Shown here piece by piece: positions 2,327-37,166 of a DNA stretch of 37,648 bases. The translations under genes were made by a program, and so were the position numbers. This DNA is from a virus: positions 1 to 37,648 of IMG/VR virus record IMGVR_UViG_3300045974_000319; one strand, given 5' to 3'. Positions within the stretch are counted from its first letter, which is position 1; every line of letters begins with the position of its first letter. The notes under the pieces are model-generated. The model searched no databases. It worked only from the letters and a program-made list of their open reading frames with translations, and was not told the origin of the DNA.

Positions 2327-3946
2327 ATGGCCGATCCATTCGCACCTGGCGCCCACGTTGTCGCCTATCTGCGCGATTCAGGCCATGAAGATCAGGAAGC
2401 CTCCGTCGATCAACAGGAAAGCCAGATCCGCGAGTTCTGCCTGGCCAATGGGCTTATCTTAACAACCGTATACGCCGATGCTGCCGCACCAGGTTCCTCC
2501 ACCATCGGCCGCGACCGCTTCCTGGAGATGATCCACCACTTCCGCTCTCCGGAGTGCAAAGATGCAGGCGTCATCGTCTGGAAGTTCAGCAGGTTTGCCA
2601 GGTCGATCGACGATTCGCAGTTTTACAAAGCCGATCTGCGCCGCCGTGGCTACACCATTCATTCCCTGCATGACCAGGTACCCGATGGTCTGGACGGCAG
2701 GTTTTTCGAATCGGCTGTCGACTGGATGAACGCCAGGTATCTCGAAGACATGTCTGCCGATGTCATCCGCGGGCAGCATCACCTCATTGAACAGCACGGC
2801 GCCCTGGGTGGCACCCCGCCCCGAGGCTTCACCCGCGAAGAAATCACGCTGCCGCCCCACCGTGATGGCCATCCACACATCGTCCACCGCTGGATACCCA
2901 ACCCAGACCTGGCCCCGCTCGTTCTACAGGCTTTCAGCATGCGCGCCTCCGGAGCGTCTTATGCTGCAATTAATAAGGCCACCCGCCTCTATAAATCCAC
3001 GAACTGCTACGAAACATTCTTCAAAAACCAGCTCTACATTGGCATCATGCGCTTCGGTGACAAAATCATCCTGGATTATTGCGCACCCATTGTTCCCCGT
3101 GAAATCTGGGACGCGGTCCAATCCATCCAGGCCGTCAGCAAAAAAGCCGTGTCCACCAGCGCAGATCATCCCCGTCGCAAATCAACCCCCTTCCTGCTCT
3201 CCGGCCTGGTCTTCTGTGCCCAGTGCGGCAGCAGCATGGATGCGGACCTGATCCAATTCCGCTCGACGGCCAAATATCGCTACGCCTACTACACCTGCTC
3301 AGGCCGCTCCCGCCACACCTGCAGCGCGCGCAAGGTCCCGCGTGCAATCCTCGAGAACACCATTCTCGAAACCATCGCCGAAATCATCCTTGAGCCAGCC
3401 TATCTGACTGCCCTCTACGACCACCAGGTCATCCTGCGCCGCGACCAGGCCAAGACCAACCGCGTAGAGCGCAACCGTCTCAACAGCCTCCTCACCGGCA
3501 CGCGCAAACGCATCGAGAATATCACTAACCTTCTCGCTGATATGGGCACCGCGGCACGCTCCCTGACCCCCAAACTGAAAGACCTCGAAGCCGAAGAAAC
3601 ACGCATCCTCAATAGCCTCAACGACCTCGAAAAGCCCCTCTCGCCCCTGCCATCCATCGAAGAGATCCAACAGCAAGCCACGCAACTGCGCGCTACGATC
3701 GCCCTGCTTGAAAATGCAGATCAAATCTCCACTATTCTGCACGGCCTGATCAGCAGAATCACCATCTCCCTCGACGAGGACAAGACTATCCGCGGCATCC
3801 TGGAGTATTTTGAGCCCTTAAACGCATACAGGGCATCCTATGATGCCCTGTATGGTCCTAATTTTTATGTCTATACTCAGTGCCCCGGGAGGGACTCGAC
3901 CTATAGACATAAAATTCAGCTGCCCTTCTCCACATTGGTTAAATAA
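2327..3946 (+). CDS. Large serine recombinase (phage integrase)
   Basis: A 539-aa protein. The N-terminal resolvase domain (about 10-150) carries the nucleophile region YLRDS, with Ser18 as likely catalytic serine and Arg16 beside it, and the KFSRFARS helix. A recombinase domain follows (about 160-275), then a zinc ribbon (CAQC near 300 and two later Cys), then a long coiled coil (about 375-480). Enzymes of this size integrate or excise phage DNA at attP/attB without supercoiling or host factors. It follows the methyltransferase by three bases. The last 30 or so codons overlap an attP-like inverted repeat, and the stop codon abuts the stop of the convergent lysin with no base between. Confidence 0.92.
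   Translation: MADPFAPGAHVVAYLRDSGHEDQEASVDQQESQIREFCLANGLILTTVYADAAAPGSSTIGRDRFLEMIHHFRSPECKDAGVIVWKFSRFARSIDDSQFYKADLRRRGYTIHSLHDQVPDGLDGRFFESAVDWMNARYLEDMSADVIRGQHHLIEQHGALGGTPPRGFTREEITLPPHRDGHPHIVHRWIPNPDLAPLVLQAFSMRASGASYAAINKATRLYKSTNCYETFFKNQLYIGIMRFGDKIILDYCAPIVPREIWDAVQSIQAVSKKAVSTSADHPRRKSTPFLLSGLVFCAQCGSSMDADLIQFRSTAKYRYAYYTCSGRSRHTCSARKVPRAILENTILETIAEIILEPAYLTALYDHQVILRRDQAKTNRVERNRLNSLLTGTRKRIENITNLLADMGTAARSLTPKLKDLEAEETRILNSLNDLEKPLSPLPSIEEIQQQATQLRATIALLENADQISTILHGLISRITISLDEDKTIRGILEYFEPLNAYRASYDALYGPNFYVYTQCPGRDSTYRHKIQLPFSTLVK
3863..3914. other. Candidate attP within the 3' end of the serine recombinase
   Basis: TTTTATGTCTATA (3863-3875) and its exact complement (3902-3914) form 13-bp arms around a GC-rich 26-bp core, 52 bp in all, a usual attP size for serine integrases. 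On the minus strand the core reads TCGAGTCCCTCCCGGGGCAC. That matches the 3' part of a tRNA gene: T-loop, 3' T-stem CCCTC, acceptor strand CCGGGGC and discriminator A. The 5' T-stem strand is absent, so this is not a tRNA gene. Identity blocks starting at the T-loop are typical of sites that restore a tRNA on integration. Which recombinase uses it is inferred from location. Confidence 0.6.
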
Positions 3947-5572: not shown

Positions 5573-6034
5573 CTAAATCTCGTAAATCGAGTCAATAAAA
5601 ATCCAATCGTTGACGACTACACCAGCACCGCCCCATGGCAGGGTGGTTATATTCCAACTGCTATGCCATACAAAAAGGGAGCTGTTCGACCCGGCAATGT
5701 TCGCCTTTGATGCTAATCCGCCAGACGGGACAATTTTCCCATTTTCCATAAAGAGAGAATTATTGACCGCTGCAATCGGACGCGCTACCTGAAAGTTTCC
5801 TGTCCATGATCCGACGTTCGTTATTATTTTGGAGACCTGGACATGGCAGAGATGATTGAATGTTCGGTAGCGGCTTCTTAAAACTGTTTCCGCATACGTT
5901 CCAGCCGATCCGGTCGATCCTGTTACGGTCGAGGTGTATGTGTACCAGATGGTCGAAGGTGTTTGCATTCTTTGCAGCCGGTCAACGTCCGCCTGTAATT
6001 TCGCAATCTGCTTGACTATGTCAACGTCGCTCAT
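5573..6034 (-). CDS. Putative tail fiber / receptor-binding protein
   Basis: A 153-aa protein with a short N-terminal heptad helix (IVKQIAKLQADVDRLQRM, residues 6-23), then a beta-rich body of Gly, Ser, Thr and Asn. A short coiled coil before a beta domain is the usual plan of small trimeric phage fibers and head domains. Its start overlaps the stop of the Gp37-like hub gene by four bases (6031-6034). Its position next to the hub and before the lysin fits a tail-tip host-binding protein. No specific family is recognised. Confidence 0.65.
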   Translation of the reverse strand: MSDVDIVKQIAKLQADVDRLQRMQTPSTIWYTYTSTVTGSTGSAGTYAETVLRSRYRTFNHLCHVQVSKIITNVGSWTGNFQVARPIAAVNNSLFMENGKIVPSGGLASKANIAGSNSSLFVWHSSWNITTLPWGGAGVVVNDWIFIDSIYEI

Positions 6035-7143
6035 ATCGCATCCTCTGCGTACAACTGCACCTCTATTTTTGCGGTTGTCGAATTGACCGTGCCGTGTTCG
6101 CTGTTGAGATGGCAGTTAAACGATGCTCCGCCATAATAGGCTGTTACCACGTCCCCAAATCCGATATGCACGCCATAAGTACAGGCGGGGGTATCCGCGA
6201 GGGTTCCCGTGAATATTCGCTTCCCACGGTCCGCGAAAAGCTCTTGACTGGCCTCTGCGTTGAGTGTCGCCGTGTCTGTTGTCGAGTAGCCGTAGATGAA
6301 CTTCTCGCGTCTCCCAAATGGGGAGGAGGCCAACCGCGCCGCATTGGTGGCGGTGCCGATTGTACGATCCGCCCCTGTACCCGATCCGCCCGCCTTGATA
6401 ACCGTGCGCTCCTGGGAGTAATCGTAGACAACCTTAGGGTTGAGCAGGTTCCCGCGATCTGTAGAGATTGTTACCGGCTGTGCACTGGTTGAGGAATGAT
6501 CGTTTCCGCGCCTGCCCACATAGCTATTGAAAGTGAGGGTTGTACCATCCCACGTCCAATCCCAGGTCAGATATGATCCGAGAGATGCGCTGTTTTGGGC
6601 TATTTCCTGCATGGTTTGCAGGAGATTGGCATAAGCGCATTGTTTTGTAATGCCTAAGCCCAATCCCAAATTTGCAGACACCGCGATGCTTGCGTTGATG
6701 CGCGTGGTATCTGTGGAAGCTGGCCCGCCATTCTCTCGCAAAAACTGCTTGATGAGGTCATCTGCGCCGCCCGTCTTTTGACTGTTGGCATTCGTGACCG
6801 TGTCGGTTGAGGCGGGGTAATCGACCATCAGCCCATCCAGCACATAATTCGCGTCGGCTGCCTGTATTTCGATATTCTGGAATTGCCCGCTGATCGTCTT
6901 TTTGCGTAATAGCCACTGCGTTCCACCTACCAGATAAGCAGGGCGTGATCCTATCGTGCACCATATTTCAAGCCGCGCATCCGTTGCCAGCCAACTTTGA
7001 TCGATCTTTCCCCCGGGGATATTGAGTGTCATCCATCCGACCTGCTTCTCGGTTCGCGCCCATTCCAGAGAGGTGAACGGAACGAACGGGGTAATCACTA
7101 CGTTATTCTGATTGAGGAGCCTTACCTGATAGTCGCTTATCAT
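6031..7143 (-). CDS. Siphovirus Gp37-like tail hub protein (tail-associated)
   Basis: The start at 7143 overlaps the stop of the distal tail gene as ATGA. The 370-aa protein opens with a beta-rich half (WARTEKQVGWMTLNIPG) and continues with the characteristic stretch around NLLNPKVVYDYSQERTVI and AGGSGTGADRTI, then a C-terminal beta domain. This agrees with the ReqiPepy6 Gp37-like family found at tail tips of many Gram-positive siphophages. It probably forms the hub below the distal tail ring. No peptidase motif is seen. Confidence 0.75.
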   Translation of the reverse strand: MISDYQVRLLNQNNVVITPFVPFTSLEWARTEKQVGWMTLNIPGGKIDQSWLATDARLEIWCTIGSRPAYLVGGTQWLLRKKTISGQFQNIEIQAADANYVLDGLMVDYPASTDTVTNANSQKTGGADDLIKQFLRENGGPASTDTTRINASIAVSANLGLGLGITKQCAYANLLQTMQEIAQNSASLGSYLTWDWTWDGTTLTFNSYVGRRGNDHSSTSAQPVTISTDRGNLLNPKVVYDYSQERTVIKAGGSGTGADRTIGTATNAARLASSPFGRREKFIYGYSTTDTATLNAEASQELFADRGKRIFTGTLADTPACTYGVHIGFGDVVTAYYGGASFNCHLNSEHGTVNSTTAKIEVQLYAEDAI

Positions 7144-12202: not shown

Positions 12203-12291
12203 TGTGTTCCTGCCTTTCACAAACCTCCCGAAAGCGCCGGGCAGGGCGGGAGGACGCCTTTTCGAGGGCGGCTCTATCCCGGCGCTATTGA

Positions 12292-28316: not shown

Positions 28317-28814
28317 TTACCAGGTCACCGGAAAATCATCATCGTCCGGGTTAACCTGCTTCCGTTTCACTTCCACCAGGCTCTTCGTCTCCGCGGGCTG
28401 GTTCATTTCCTTAAGCATCTTCAAAATCTGCAGCTGCACCAATTGCTGCATCGGGTCTCCCGTCAACTGCAGGCCAGGTCCTTCCTTTTCCCAGTGCGCA
28501 TTTGGCCCGCTCTTCCACTTGCCTGGGATCACCCGCGCCGGATTGGCTGCCACAATTTCATTCTCCGCATGTCTCCGCATCAGGTCCCAGCGGATGATCA
28601 AAATCACCAGGGCCAGAACCAGCACTGCCAGGACGATCACCACAATCGTCAAACCCACGCTGCTCACCGTCTGCCCGGCCGATGCCATCTGTGCCGCTCG
28701 CGCCGCCTCGATGGCTGCCTGGGCCTGCTGTGCGCTCGCCACGTTATTGCTGATCGACGATCCCAATACCAGCATCACGATTACCGCCAGTAGTATCACC
28801 ATGATCCAGAGCAT
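28317..28814 (-). CDS. Two-span membrane protein next to the FtsK-like gene
   Basis: A 165-aa protein with spans at about 3-19 and 52-75, an Ala/Gln-rich stretch between them, and a soluble C-terminal half (GKWKSGPNAHWEKEGPGLQL). The Ala/Gln linker echoes the stalk of the FtsK-like protein. It likely partners with that protein at the membrane. AAAGGA lies upstream of the ATG; the gene overlaps the preceding ORF by 71 bases. Confidence 0.7.
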   Translation of the reverse strand: MLWIMVILLAVIVMLVLGSSISNNVASAQQAQAAIEAARAAQMASAGQTVSSVGLTIVVIVLAVLVLALVILIIRWDLMRRHAENEIVAANPARVIPGKWKSGPNAHWEKEGPGLQLTGDPMQQLVQLQILKMLKEMNQPAETKSLVEVKRKQVNPDDDDFPVTW

Positions 28815-28932
28815 TTTTCCGATTCCTTTCTTCTTCAGCTCTCGAAATCCGACCCGATAAAATGCAGATGCTGATCACGCAAACGCCCACAAATGCACCA
28901 ATTCCCGCCAAAATCGCCCACAAAAGCCACAT
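28744..28932 (-). CDS. Small single-span membrane protein
   Basis: A 62-aa protein with an N-terminal membrane span (WAILAGIGAFVGVCVISICI) and a polar, charged tail. AGGAGG four bases before the ATG is among the best ribosome sites of the window. It overlaps the next gene by 71 bases, so its polar tail is less certain than its start. First gene of the membrane/FtsK operon. Confidence 0.55.
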   Translation of the reverse strand: MWLLWAILAGIGAFVGVCVISICILSGRISRAEEERNRKNALDHGDTTGGNRDAGIGIVDQQ

Positions 28933-28977
28933 ACGCCCTCCTAAAATCGCTTATTCATCTCTCTTTATTACCCGTTT

Positions 28978-29005
28978 ATTACAAATGTTAAAGAAACTTT
29001 TTCAA
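28978..29005 (-). promoter_or_regulatory. Promoter for the membrane/FtsK operon
   Basis: Minus-strand TTGAAA (29005-29000), a 16-base spacer and TGTAAT (28983-28978), each one base from consensus. It lies about 46 bases before the ATG at 28932 and just below the GTGAACTT cluster, whose binding protein could control it. Confidence 0.5.
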
Positions 29006-29014
29006 ACGAAGCCC

Positions 29015-29376
29015 GTGAACTTCCGATTCTGAAGTTCACACTAAGTTCACGCGATCTTCACCTTGACCAATAGCAGGCTTGACCACACCCTTAGAAAAAA
29101 AAGCGCGTCACTCATGTTAGTTAACAAGAGTTCAATGTATTCACAGGTATTGTGAATAAAATGATGCAAAATGGCCCTTCCAACCCCCCGCACCCCCCCT
29201 ATTACCAATGATTCCAATGTTAAAGAGCCGTGTGAACTTGTGAACTTCGTTAACTTCCATGGGGGGATACACATTGTGATTTAGTCTTTTTTCTTCCTTT
29301 TGACCCGTTTTCGCCGTTTTTTCGCCCTGCACAAAGTCAGCAGCCGCATGGAAGTTAACGAAGTTCACAAGTTCAC
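29015..29376. other. Candidate replication origin with GTGAACTT iterons
   Basis: GTGAACTT or its complement occurs at 29015, 29032, 29043, 29232, 29240, 29361 and 29369, with GTTAACTT at 29249 and its complement mirrored. The region has no convincing gene. It holds a T-rich stretch (about 29285-29325), a C-rich run near 29190 and a long inverted repeat. It lies directly after the primase-helicase gene. An eighth GTGAACTT is at 32569, upstream of that gene. An origin or autoregulatory site is inferred. Confidence 0.55.
29232..29376. repeat. 30-bp perfect inverted repeat
   Basis: 29232-29261 and 29347-29376 are exact reverse complements (30 of 30), separated by 85 bases. Each arm consists of two GTGAACTT units, a GTTAACTT unit and CCATG. 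The loop is too long for a terminator. Exact identity over 30 bases in non-coding DNA implies selection or recent duplication. Confidence 0.9.
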
Positions 29377-32913: not shown

Positions 32914-33235
32914 TTCTGTTCCTTTTCTGAATGTAACTACTCACTACATTGCCATTACCAAGCCTTACACTACAATTCGTGGCATGTCCGTTCCATCGCA
33001 CAACACTCAATTCTGTTCATCTCATTCGCGGCTCAGTTCTAAACTCTACATTTCCTTCGCGATGCTGAGCATTGCCTTGCCTCACATGACCTGGCTTTTC
33101 CGTTGCCCCATTGCGCGATTCGTTACGCCGCCATTCCTTCACATTGCATAACCGATCCGTGCTTTACTGTTGCTACCCTGCTCTGTGCAAAACCTTGCCT
33201 TCACCTCTCCGATCTACACAACTCTATTCCTTCGC
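32914..33235 (-). repeat. Non-coding tract A with ~5-nt NNNNG periodicity
   Basis: On the minus strand this entire spacer divides into units of five (sometimes six) bases ending in G. A clear run is AAAAG CCAGG TCATG TGAGG, continuing CAAGG CAATG CTCAG CATCG CGAAG (about 33051-33098). Another is TAAAG CACGG ATCGG TTATG, then CAATG TGAAG. A period of five cannot arise from codons. The units are not copies of each other. The tract fills the space between the RAMP-like gene's stop and the zinc-ribbon gene's ribosome site. No gene is supported in it. Confidence 0.75.
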
Positions 33236-33844
33236 TCAGTCCCTCGTCAGCGTGTAGCGGAAGGTCCCATAGGCGCCAGATCCGTGCCATTGACCAATTC
33301 CGCGATAGAAACCATAATCCAGCAAATCCCGCAGCACTTCTTCCGTCACCGGCCCCTCTTCCAGGATCTCTATCCCACAGGTAAAGGTCGTGCCCTCTGG
33401 CACCATCTCGCTCCTGGCCAGCGTGACTCTCGGACCCTGCATCGTCTCAGCGCGCAGCGGCCGCTCCAGGTAATCCATCTCGCCATCGGCAGGCAGCGCC
33501 AGCGGAATGATGCGCGGGCTGATGAAAACGTTGTTTTCAACCTTGCTCTTCAGGTTCTTCACGCCGCCCGCCACGCGCCCGTTCTGCACGCTCGCTGATG
33601 CCTTCAGGAAACCGAGCACCTGGTAATTGACCAGGCAGATCTGCTCGAGTTTTCCAGGCACGCGATTGAAGACGGTCGTGCCCTTCTCCAGCGCTTCGGG
33701 CAGCAGCTCGTCATCGTTCTCCGGCAGGCTTTCCAGTCCCTTGCGCTTGGCAATATGCTCGCTGGCCAGTTCTTTGTTTCCCGGTTGGCTGCCCAGGATG
33801 GGCGTCAAAAACTCCACATTCAACTTGAATCCGATCGTTTTCAT
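33236..33844 (-). CDS. RAMP-like glycine-loop phage protein
   Basis: A 202-aa protein: N-terminal strand GFKLNVEFLTPILGSQPG, a central YLERPLRAETMQGPRVTLAR, and a C-terminal DYGFYRGIGQWHGSGAYGTF. Opening with a beta strand after which a substrate-facing loop follows and ending with a G-rich loop is how RAMP (Cas5/Cas7-type) RNA-binding domains look. I recall similar proteins among phages of Clostridia but without known function. No cas genes or CRISPR arrays are in the window. Its ATG overlaps the upstream stop (ATGA). It is immediately followed by tract A. Confidence 0.65.
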   Translation of the reverse strand: MKTIGFKLNVEFLTPILGSQPGNKELASEHIAKRKGLESLPENDDELLPEALEKGTTVFNRVPGKLEQICLVNYQVLGFLKASASVQNGRVAGGVKNLKSKVENNVFISPRIIPLALPADGEMDYLERPLRAETMQGPRVTLARSEMVPEGTTFTCGIEILEEGPVTEEVLRDLLDYGFYRGIGQWHGSGAYGTFRYTLTRD

Positions 33845-35496: not shown

Positions 35497-36441
35497 TTAT
35501 TTTCCCCTCCGCAGCTTGCCCAACTCGCCCGCTTCCACCGCTTCCGCCAGGTCCTCGCGACCCGGCTGCACGTAACGCGCGGTCGTTTCCAACTTCTCGT
35601 GACCCAGGATCTTCTGCACCTCGGTCAACGGGCGGCCAGCATCCACCATGCTCTTGGCGCAGGTATGGCGCAGCACATGGCAGCCCAGATCACTGATGCC
35701 CGTCTGGCGTGCGATCTCTTCGACCCGCTTCTGGATCCCGCGCACGCTCACCCCGGCGAAGAACGTCTCTTCATTCGTGTACGTCGAGATCGCCAGCCAA
35801 TCGCTCAGTGCTGCCCTGCAGGATGCTGACAGCGGCAATGTGCGCGTCTTGTCGCATTTTCCCCGCCGCACCACCACATCCCCCTTGCGCTCGCTCATCG
35901 TCACATCCCCATGCTGCAGGTTGGCCACTTCTTCCACGCGCAGCCCGGCGAAACGCATCAGGCTCACCATGGCCAGGTCGCGTATTGCCCGCTCGCGTTG
36001 GATCGATGTCATGGCTGCATTCACGTTGATCTCCACCTGGCGCATTACCTTGCGTTCCTCGGCTGCTTCCAACCAGCGCGGCGCCTGCTCCTGCTCGCGT
36101 TCGGCCTGCAGACATTTCTCGAAGGCAATCGGCCGCATGCCCAGCGCCCGTTCGCACCAGGTGCACAGCACGCGCAGCGTCGCCCGCCGCCGGTTCCACG
36201 TTGCCGGGCTGCACTGCTCCACCTCCACGCAGCTCGTGCGGTAATCGCGCAGATCGCGCGTGTTGAGCAGCCCAGGCTCGAAAAGCGAACCGTTTGCCCG
36301 CAGCCACCAGGCACAAAAATGCTTCAGATCCGCCTGGTATGCCTTGACTGTCCCCGCGCTGCGTTCCTCACGCAGGTAAGTCTCAAACTCACCTGCCCAA
36401 TCCAACTCCACCTTCGTCTTCTCTACTGTTTGCTGTTCCAT
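35497..36441 (-). CDS. Tyrosine recombinase (Xer/phage integrase type)
   Basis: The ATG at 36441 (AAAGGG upstream) is preferred to 36465. The 314-aa protein has an N-terminal SAM-like core-binding domain (about 15-110) and a catalytic domain with Arg in FAGLRVEEV (about 168), Lys in GKCDKTRTLPL (about 195-198), His-x-x-Arg in CHVLRHTCA (about 255-258), His in LGHEKLETTARY (about 281) and Tyr (about 290). All six catalytic residues are intact. A compact Xer-like enzyme in the early operon beside a separate serine recombinase suggests dimer resolution or a second integration activity. It follows tract B directly. Confidence 0.9.
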   Translation of the reverse strand: MEQQTVEKTKVELDWAGEFETYLREERSAGTVKAYQADLKHFCAWWLRANGSLFEPGLLNTRDLRDYRTSCVEVEQCSPATWNRRRATLRVLCTWCERALGMRPIAFEKCLQAEREQEQAPRWLEAAEERKVMRQVEINVNAAMTSIQRERAIRDLAMVSLMRFAGLRVEEVANLQHGDVTMSERKGDVVVRRGKCDKTRTLPLSASCRAALSDWLAISTYTNEETFFAGVSVRGIQKRVEEIARQTGISDLGCHVLRHTCAKSMVDAGRPLTEVQKILGHEKLETTARYVQPGREDLAEAVEAGELGKLRRGK

Positions 36442-36465
36442 CGCTACCCTTTCAACTCGTTTCAT

Positions 36466-36809
36466 TGCTTCTGCGTCTCATCGCTACCATTCACGACCGC
36501 GCCATGCCTTCTCAGATCCTCACAAAACGTATCTCGACCATTCCCTCGCATGACTGGACGTTTCGTTGCTTCGCCTTGCCACCACCATGCTTCCGATGCG
36601 ATCCGTCACAATGCCCTACCCCTGCTGTGCTCACCTATTCATTTCCTTCGCTCTCAATTCTGCGCAGAGCATACGCTGCCCCTGCTATTCCGCTCGGTTC
36701 TGTCCTGTGCCTTCGCCTTGCCTTGCCCGTCCGGTCTGATCTTTTCCGTCGCGCTGCCTTGCAGGTCTGATCTGTCCTTTGCCGTCGCAGTCCATATCCT
36801 GGCCCGGCT
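36466..36809 (-). repeat. Non-coding tract B with ~5-nt NNNNG periodicity
   Basis: On the minus strand this 344-bp spacer has the same phase pattern as tract A: ATCAG ACCTG CAAGG CAGCG, followed by CGACG; and ATCAG ACCGG ACGGG CAAGG, followed by CAAGG CGAAG (about 36710-36776). It shares local similarity with tract A, for example 36538-36569 against 33075-33106, and ATTTCCTTCGC at 36641 and 33050. The tract runs from the stop of the upstream gene to the recombinase gene. Open frames on the plus strand here are by-products of the C-rich, A-poor composition. Confidence 0.75.
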
Positions 36810-37166
36810 TTACAGTCCCAGTGCTACCTTCAACAGGTTCAGTTGTTGCTCATTCCAGAAAAACTTAAAGCCTTCGCGCGTGCGCATCGAGCGCAGCCCC
36901 AGCTTCGTCACAATCCGCCCCACCCGCGCCGCGGTCACTTCTCCCCCAGTCGGCTCGGTCTTGGTCAACAGCCAGGCCAGATCCTTCATAAACATCCACC
37001 AGGCTCCGCCGTGATTGATCGCCACAGCGTATTCCGGATCCGCCAGCTTTGACTCGAGCACCAGGTGCTTCACCACCAGTTTGCTCAACACGTCCGGAGC
37101 ACTGCATACCACCGGCTCCGCTTCCAACACCTTCGCATACGTTTCCCGATCCAAAATTCCATTCAT
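36810..37166 (-). CDS. Winged-helix-like early protein
   Basis: A 118-aa protein. The C-terminal half (TGGEVTAARVGRIVTKLGLR, then SMRTREGFKFFWNEQQ) has the helix-turn-helix and wing-like order of a small winged-helix domain. The N-terminal half is helical with a Trp-rich turn (GGAWWMFMKDLAWLLTKTEP). It is the second leftward early gene, where replication or antirepression regulators are common. AAAGGAAA precedes the ATG. Function inferred only. Confidence 0.65.
   Translation of the reverse strand: MNGILDRETYAKVLEAEPVVCSAPDVLSKLVVKHLVLESKLADPEYAVAINHGGAWWMFMKDLAWLLTKTEPTGGEVTAARVGRIVTKLGLRSMRTREGFKFFWNEQQLNLLKVALGL

What the first reader, a model, noticed from the sequence alone, without database searches (positions are those of the whole stretch)
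36466..36809. Tract B: an intergenic region built of ~5-nt NNNNG units
On the leftward strand G recurs at about every fifth base for more than 300 bases, with occasional 6-nt units that shift the phase. The units themselves differ, so it is not a simple microsatellite, and a period of five is not a codon effect. The whole spacer is filled, from the stop of the winged-helix-like gene to the tyrosine recombinase. I know of no named element with this property. It could be a binding lattice for a protein contacting one base in five, a nucleic-acid loading or recombination site, or a structured purine-rich RNA.
Basis: seen in the sequence. Interest (0 to 1): 0.78.

Follow-up and report, generated by a model that had tools for sequence, protein, structure and literature searches.

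The report
Phage guide-RNA array (VIPR type)
The odd stretch with a G at every fifth base is most likely a long guide-RNA array for a small CRISPR-like protein that the same phage encodes 2.6 kb away, a phage-versus-phage weapon called VIPR that was first described in a 2026 preprint.

Summary
In detail: on the minus strand G recurs every 5 nt through 36466-36818 (lag-5 z=6.0; detector score 22.4 against at most 8.9 in 2000 shuffles). A sister tract lies at 32937-33242. Tract A starts at the stop of an unannotated 202-aa gene (33236-33844, -) that folds like the CRISPR backbone protein Cas7/Csm3 (Z about 13). Relatives found by protein homology alone carry the same kind of tract beside the gene: 74/80 and 67/80 viral loci and 47/49 bacterial-genome loci, about 20-60 times the density elsewhere. 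Reading afterwards, I found that this is VIPR (PMC13142463): a phage RAMP protein (Vipr) with RNAs of tandem pentanucleotides, a fixed motif alternating with a variable NN that pairs with target DNA. My detector, run on the VIPR phage SUSP1, finds four tracts, placed as its four published vrRNAs are. So tract B is a vrRNA-type guide array. It differs from published type II: one invariant G per unit instead of GGY, no recognisable 3' tail, about 60 units per array, and 6-nt units at a regular superperiod (31 nt in tract A, 36 nt in tract B). The target code of this lineage could not be tested: no targets were found.

The parts
36466..36818 (-). Tract B: array of about 65 units, consensus [C/A]ANNG, with 6-nt units (NNNNGG) about every 7th unit; proposed vrRNA-type guide array
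32937..33242 (-). Tract A: sister array, about 59 units, 6-nt units about every 6th unit; lies directly downstream of the Vipr gene
33236..33844 (-). Vipr homologue P0001, 202 aa, Cas7/Csm3-like RAMP fold with C-terminal glycine-rich loop (GIGQWHGSGAYGTF)
35497..36465 (-). Neighbour of tract B: tyrosine integrase (context, not part of the system)
36810..37166 (-). Neighbour of tract B: 118-aa protein of unknown family whose stop codon opens tract B (context)

Best explanation
Tract B (with tract A) is a DNA-encoded array of guide RNA of the VIPR kind. The leftward transcript carries about 65 units of 5 nt. In each unit the invariant G, flanked by C/A-biased bases, would be held by one protomer of the phage's own Cas7-like Vipr protein (33236-33844), while the two most variable bases (unit positions 3 and 4) are shown for pairing. 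Vipr protomers would polymerise along the RNA and use the chain of dinucleotides to recognise DNA of competing phages or prophages and repress transcription. Shown here: the periodicity, its linkage to the Vipr gene family, the Cas7-like fold, the invariance of G and the fast change of the other positions. Inferred from the published VIPR systems: transcription and processing, binding by Vipr, DNA targeting with a 1-nt skip, and repression of rivals.
For: Only two tracts in the window, one starting at the stop of P0001. P0001 folds like Csm3 and type VII Cas7 (Foldseek E 1.7e-8; Z 13.3 over 167 residues; model pLDDT 86.8). Protein-only searches recover tracts beside the gene in 74/80, 67/80 and 47/49 loci; density near vs far 4.1 vs 0.07, 5.7 vs 0.09, 3.6 vs 0.19 per 10 kb. 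In 31 large viral contigs, 28 have the tract within 2.5 kb of vipr, on its strand, and only two other tracts exist. SUSP1 positive control: exactly four tracts, one upstream and three downstream of its vipr, as published for its four vrRNAs. P0001's subfamily is linked by profile to the SUSP1-type Viprs (hhalign E 2.2e-6, probability 89). Between relatives (pairs with tracts 50-99.5% identical) the G position differs at 4.6% and the others at 27-44%.
Against: No transcript evidence. No natural target was found in 5.5 Mb of fetched DNA under any skip rule, nor for one tract A stretch in viral contigs. The unit is not GGY/NN but one invariant G with weak flanking bias. No 3' tail and no constant accessory gene were seen. 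Tract B sits 2.6 kb from vipr, whereas relatives nearly always have one adjacent array. The between-relative comparison rests on alignments of 54-99% identity that are anchored by the Gs.
Confidence: 0.85

Rival explanations
1. The tract is an RNA lattice for the phage's Cas7-like protein but not a guide: Vipr coats its own mRNA leader or spacer for autoregulation or RNA protection, and the bases between the Gs carry no target information.
For: Arrays fill intercistronic spacers on the vipr strand and end at the Shine-Dalgarno of the next gene; no targets found; arrays are far longer than the published 9-16 repeats.
Against: Positions 3-4 are near maximal entropy and diverge quickly while vipr is conserved; one pair of genomes that are 99.5% identical differs in two local patches of the tract; the related SUSP1 RNAs are proven guides (PMC13142463).
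Confidence: 0.1
2. A decayed pentanucleotide satellite (GGCAA-like) with no function.
For: CAAGG and CAATG are the commonest units; one short TRF hit with a 36-nt unit, 2.5 copies.
Against: Decay would not spare one base in five; G is retained while the other positions randomise; tight linkage to one gene family in unrelated phages and genomes; regular 6-nt superperiod.
Confidence: 0.02
3. A DNA loading or recombination site for a single-strand annealing protein or for the integrase.
For: Tract B abuts the integrase; some relatives neighbour SSB or recombination genes.
Against: Neighbours vary and the only constant partner is vipr; tract A is far from the integrase.
Confidence: 0.02

Closest known systems
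VIPR systems, type II (Escherichia phage SUSP1 and Pseudomonas fulva prophage; PMC13142463, bioRxiv 10.64898/2026.04.26.720920)
   Same: Small phage RAMP protein; neighbouring non-coding arrays of 5-nt units on the vipr strand; one fixed motif alternating with hypervariable bases; single-domain Cas7-like fold.
   Different: Window dialect has one invariant G and C/A-biased flank instead of GGY; 6-nt units at a 31- or 36-nt superperiod; arrays of about 60 units instead of 9-16; no 3' tail found; no recognisable vap; a second array 2.6 kb from vipr. Whether another of the seven published types has these traits could not be checked because the supplement was not readable.
Class 1 CRISPR-Cas backbone proteins Cas7/Csm3/Cmr4 and type VII Cas7
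   Same: Same fold and glycine-rich loop; protomers repeat along a guide RNA with periodic interruption of pairing.
   Different: Period 5 instead of 6; no CRISPR repeats, no spacers, no other cas gene; encoded by phages.
TRAP RNA-binding ring ((K)AGNN repeats)
   Same: 5-nt spaced RNA triplets read by repeated protein subunits.
   Different: Recalled from memory, not tested; TRAP binds about 11 repeats and has a different fold.

Membership tests
VIPR (any type) | Vipr protein with the RAMP fold (RRM core, glycine-rich loop) | tested here: met
   Csm3 Z 13.3, 167 residues aligned, rmsd 3.6; Foldseek 1.7e-8 to type VII Cas7; G182/G184 loop conserved
VIPR (any type) | Homology to a published Vipr (SUSP1) | tested here: met
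   Subfamily A3 vs A4: hhalign E 2.2e-6, probability 89; A4 profile vs SUSP1 gene 28474-29061: E 5.8e-81
VIPR (any type) | Non-coding tandem 5-nt array flanking vipr, fixed motif alternating with hypervariable bases (GGY/NN or related consensus) | tested here: met
   consensus is the 'related' kind, one invariant G
VIPR (any type) | Thumb domain contacting the guide | not tested
   The model has long insertions but no RNA complex was modelled
VIPR (any type) | Encoded mainly by phages or proviruses | tested here: met
   Window is a virus record with terminase, capsid and integrase genes
VIPR (any type) | RNA made from the array and bound by Vipr | not testable with these tools
   Needs small-RNA sequencing and pull-down
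VIPR (any type) | Target recognition by variable NN with a 1-nt skip | tested here: inconclusive
   No excess over shuffled unit order in 5.5 Mb; chance-level hits only
VIPR type II (SUSP1-like) | Strict GGY/NN (YNNGG) units | tested here: not met
   In 5-nt units of this lineage only G5 is invariant, position 4 is G in 24%
VIPR type II (SUSP1-like) | Several vrRNAs of 9-16 repeats each with an invariable 3' tail | tested here: not met
   About 65 and 59 continuous units; no shared tail k-mers, 3' flank shows only a Shine-Dalgarno
VIPR type II (SUSP1-like) | vap accessory gene beside vipr | tested here: inconclusive
   68 neighbours of A3 viprs share no common family; vap profiles were not available
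CRISPR-Cas class 1 | CRISPR repeat-spacer array and several cas genes | tested here: not met
   The only conspicuous arrays are pentanucleotide tracts; no cas gene among the Pfam/PHROG matches of the genes searched

The most novel reading that the evidence does not exclude
The window's lineage is a VIPR variant with its own reading frame: a single invariant G per 5-nt unit and a 6-nt unit inserted every 6 or 7 units (31 or 36 nt), read as one very long tail-less guide or as many overlapping guides, so that the published 1-nt-skip rule would need a register correction at each 6-nt step.
Probability: 0.4. Interest if true: 0.75.

Novelty: new member of a known kind. Interest (0 to 1): 0.55.

Why it matters
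VIPR is proposed to be the phage-borne ancestor of CRISPR. This window adds a member found with no prior knowledge, from sequence periodicity alone, and its lineage (at least 264 viral relatives in one scan and 49 bacterial-genome loci) shows a measurable grammar: invariant G, variable positions 3-4, and a 6-nt unit at a fixed superperiod. The superperiod gives a concrete handle on how the protein filament tracks its RNA, and periodicity scanning gives a cheap way to find guide arrays that are not annotated, including in well-known phages such as wV8, phiHSIC and LittleE.

Tried and rejected
BLASTN of tract B against phages, of tract A against plasmids, and of two tracts from other loci against phages: no match, because only phase is conserved. 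Phage relatives by terminase (76 loci): no tracts on the fetched DNA. Single-strand annealing protein and TRAP-like ideas: dropped once the constant neighbour proved to be a RAMP protein. Target search: an apparent excess at skip 1 came from low-complexity satellites and vanished after filtering and with 31 large phage contigs added; a single 12-unit match, guide L133 to L317, 23 of 24 bases, outside the window's lineage, is left as an anecdote. One predicted target stretch of tract A gave 64 exact hits in viral contigs, none extending beyond chance. Rfam: no ribozyme in the window or in 14 relatives. RNA folding: tracts not more structured than shuffles. The 5' 7-mer enrichment near arrays turned out to be codons of the Vipr glycine loop.

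Full report
1. Observation. I recomputed the G periodicity of the minus strand of 36466-36809. Lag 5 gives 75 G-G pairs against 48.3 in dinucleotide shuffles (z 6.0), lag 10 z 5.5, lag 3 z -2.6. Chaining Gs gives 65 of 84 steps of exactly 5 nt and 12 of 6 nt; that chain was built on 36380-36830 and so runs a little into the integrase gene. A local log-odds detector for this spacing scores 22.4 on the stated interval; 2000 dinucleotide shuffles reach at most 8.9. Over the whole window only two segments stand out, 36477-36818 (25.0) and 32937-33229 (25.9), against at most 10.7 in 20 shuffled windows. Both are intergenic and on the coding strand.

2. The 6-nt units. They are regular. In tract A they fall every 6 units (intervals 6,6,6,9,6,6,8), in tract B about every 7 (7,7,16,8,7,7). 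In relatives of the same lineage, 74% of the intervals between successive 6-nt units hold 4-6 five-nt units, against 21% when unit order is shuffled (n = 1179). So there is a superperiod of about 31 nt (36 nt in tract B). The 6-nt unit has its own bias (C 84%, A 58%, A 68%, N, G, G).

3. Finding the partner. A pattern scan of viral contigs for G-every-5 returned 120 loci before stopping at its limit. Scoring them separated true satellites from diverse, G-only tracts. The genes flanking the G-only tracts included one recurrent family of about 200 aa, PHROG 4652 in part, function unknown. The window gene that ends where tract A begins (33236-33844, -, P0001) is a member: it aligns at 36-39% identity with tract-linked genes from L113 and L088.

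4. Unbiased linkage test. The pattern scan is biased, so I searched by protein alone. GenBank phages found with a PHROG 4652-type member include Felixounavirus wV8, LESphi2, phiHSIC, Trine, LittleE and Medea1; P0001 itself finds four faecal phage scaffolds. Twelve of these loci were fetched and all have G-every-5 segments beside the gene, though some score only 9-13, near the noise limit. Larger sets: subfamily A3 (P0001 type) in viral contigs 74/80, subfamily A4 in viral contigs 67/80, A3 in GTDB genomes 47/49 have a tract (score 10 or more) within -1.2 to +1.8 kb; densities near against far are 4.1 vs 0.07, 5.7 vs 0.09 and 3.6 vs 0.19 per 10 kb. Of 76 loci chosen by terminase none showed a tract at 12 or more. 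In 31 large viral contigs, 28 have the array within 2.5 kb of vipr, on its strand (one also has a minor opposite-strand segment), and only two further tracts exist anywhere.

5. The protein. AlphaFold2 with 46 lineage members gives pLDDT 86.8, pTM 0.80. An earlier model (pLDDT 77) hits type VII Cas7 with Foldseek E 1.7e-8, and the better one aligns to Csm3 (9ash_F) with Z 13.3, 167 residues, rmsd 3.6; the 50 rows listed are CRISPR Cas7-type entries. A viral relative in BFVD is named 'Cas system-associated RAMP superfamily protein'. Conserved features include the C-terminal GxGQW loop.

6. What it is. A literature search then found PMC13142463 (bioRxiv, April-June 2026): VIPR, a phage RAMP protein (Vipr) with vrRNAs of 9-16 YNNGG repeats plus a 3' tail, recognising DNA through the NN bases with one skipped target base, used between competing phages; seven types, 'GGY/NN or a related consensus'. 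As a positive control I ran my detector on SUSP1, the phage used there. It finds exactly four tracts, one upstream and three downstream of the vipr gene, matching the four vrRNAs described. The SUSP1 gene is hit by my A4 profile at E 5.8e-81 and A4 is linked to the window's subfamily A3 at hhalign E 2.2e-6, probability 89.

7. What differs. In the A3 lineage only one base in five is invariant; positions 1 and 2 are biased to C/A and A, positions 3 and 4 are close to random (entropies). Arrays are long (median about 400 nt, up to 1.9 kb), lie as a rule directly after vipr or directly before it, and where the next gene follows closely they end at its Shine-Dalgarno; no common 3' tail, ribozyme or accessory gene was found. 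The window is unusual in having a second array 2.6 kb from vipr; among 31 large contigs one other (G023) has a remote array of comparable strength.

8. Evolution. Between relatives whose vipr genes are 85-96% identical, tracts are 57-78% identical in most pairs, though one pair keeps an unchanged tract. Pooled over all pairs with tracts between 50% and 99.5% identical, the G position differs in 4.6% of aligned units and positions 1-4 in 27, 36, 44 and 39%. The alignment leans on the Gs, so this shows retention of G and fast turnover of the rest, not exact rates. Two genomes 99.5% identical over 10.6 kb carry 18 of their 45 mismatches in the 615-nt tract, in two patches, one of them overlapping an internal duplication.

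9. Mechanism. Inferred from VIPR: transcription of the array, one Vipr protomer per unit with G held, dinucleotides at positions 3-4 reading DNA, repression of rival phages. Shown here: periodicity, linkage, fold, invariance of G. I could not test the code: no array-target match exceeded shuffled controls in 5.5 Mb and one predicted target stretch gave chance-level hits. Absence of targets is weak evidence, as the host of this phage is unknown and its phages are poorly sampled.

10. Verdict. A real and remarkable feature, but of a kind described in 2026. I file it as a new member of VIPR, not of type II. The superperiod, the single-G dialect and the remote second array may be unreported, but the preprint's supplement could not be read here.

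Noticed in passing
window 12224-12284 (-): Match to Rfam int-alpA RNA (RF02996), 36.6 bits, above the family's gathering score, E 4e-4.
   Followed up: no
window 2327-3946 (+) and 35497-36465 (-): The phage carries a large serine recombinase (phrog_95, E 1.6e-65) as well as a tyrosine integrase.
   Followed up: no
L262 and L267, tracts at 5946-6560: Two genomes 99.5% identical over 10.6 kb have 18 of their 45 mismatches in the guide array, in two patches; one patch overlaps a 43-nt internal duplication, which suggests local rewriting of the array.
   Followed up: partly
L204:4697-6297 (wV8 genes 95/94), L206 (LittleE gp34/33), L203 (phiHSIC ORF22), L202 (LESphi2 P21_9/8), L205 (Trine 41), L207 (Medea1_0009/0008): Well-known phages carry unannotated vipr-like genes with flanking pentanucleotide arrays, often inserted among tail or regulator genes.
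   Followed up: partly
L108, L121, L125, L169, L171: A third dialect, NNNGG units with 3-nt CAG inserts recurring at intervals, next to a vipr and a 160-aa PHROG 15946 partner where the flanks were checked (L121, L169, L171); the inserts may mark separate RNAs.
   Followed up: no
L133:3002-3131 to L317:2537-2572: A 12-unit guide stretch matches a target with one skipped base per unit at 23 of 24 informative positions.
   Followed up: no
L099, L190, L128: True pentanucleotide satellites of several hundred bases in viral contigs, periodic in C as well as G, not tied to vipr as far as checked.
   Followed up: no
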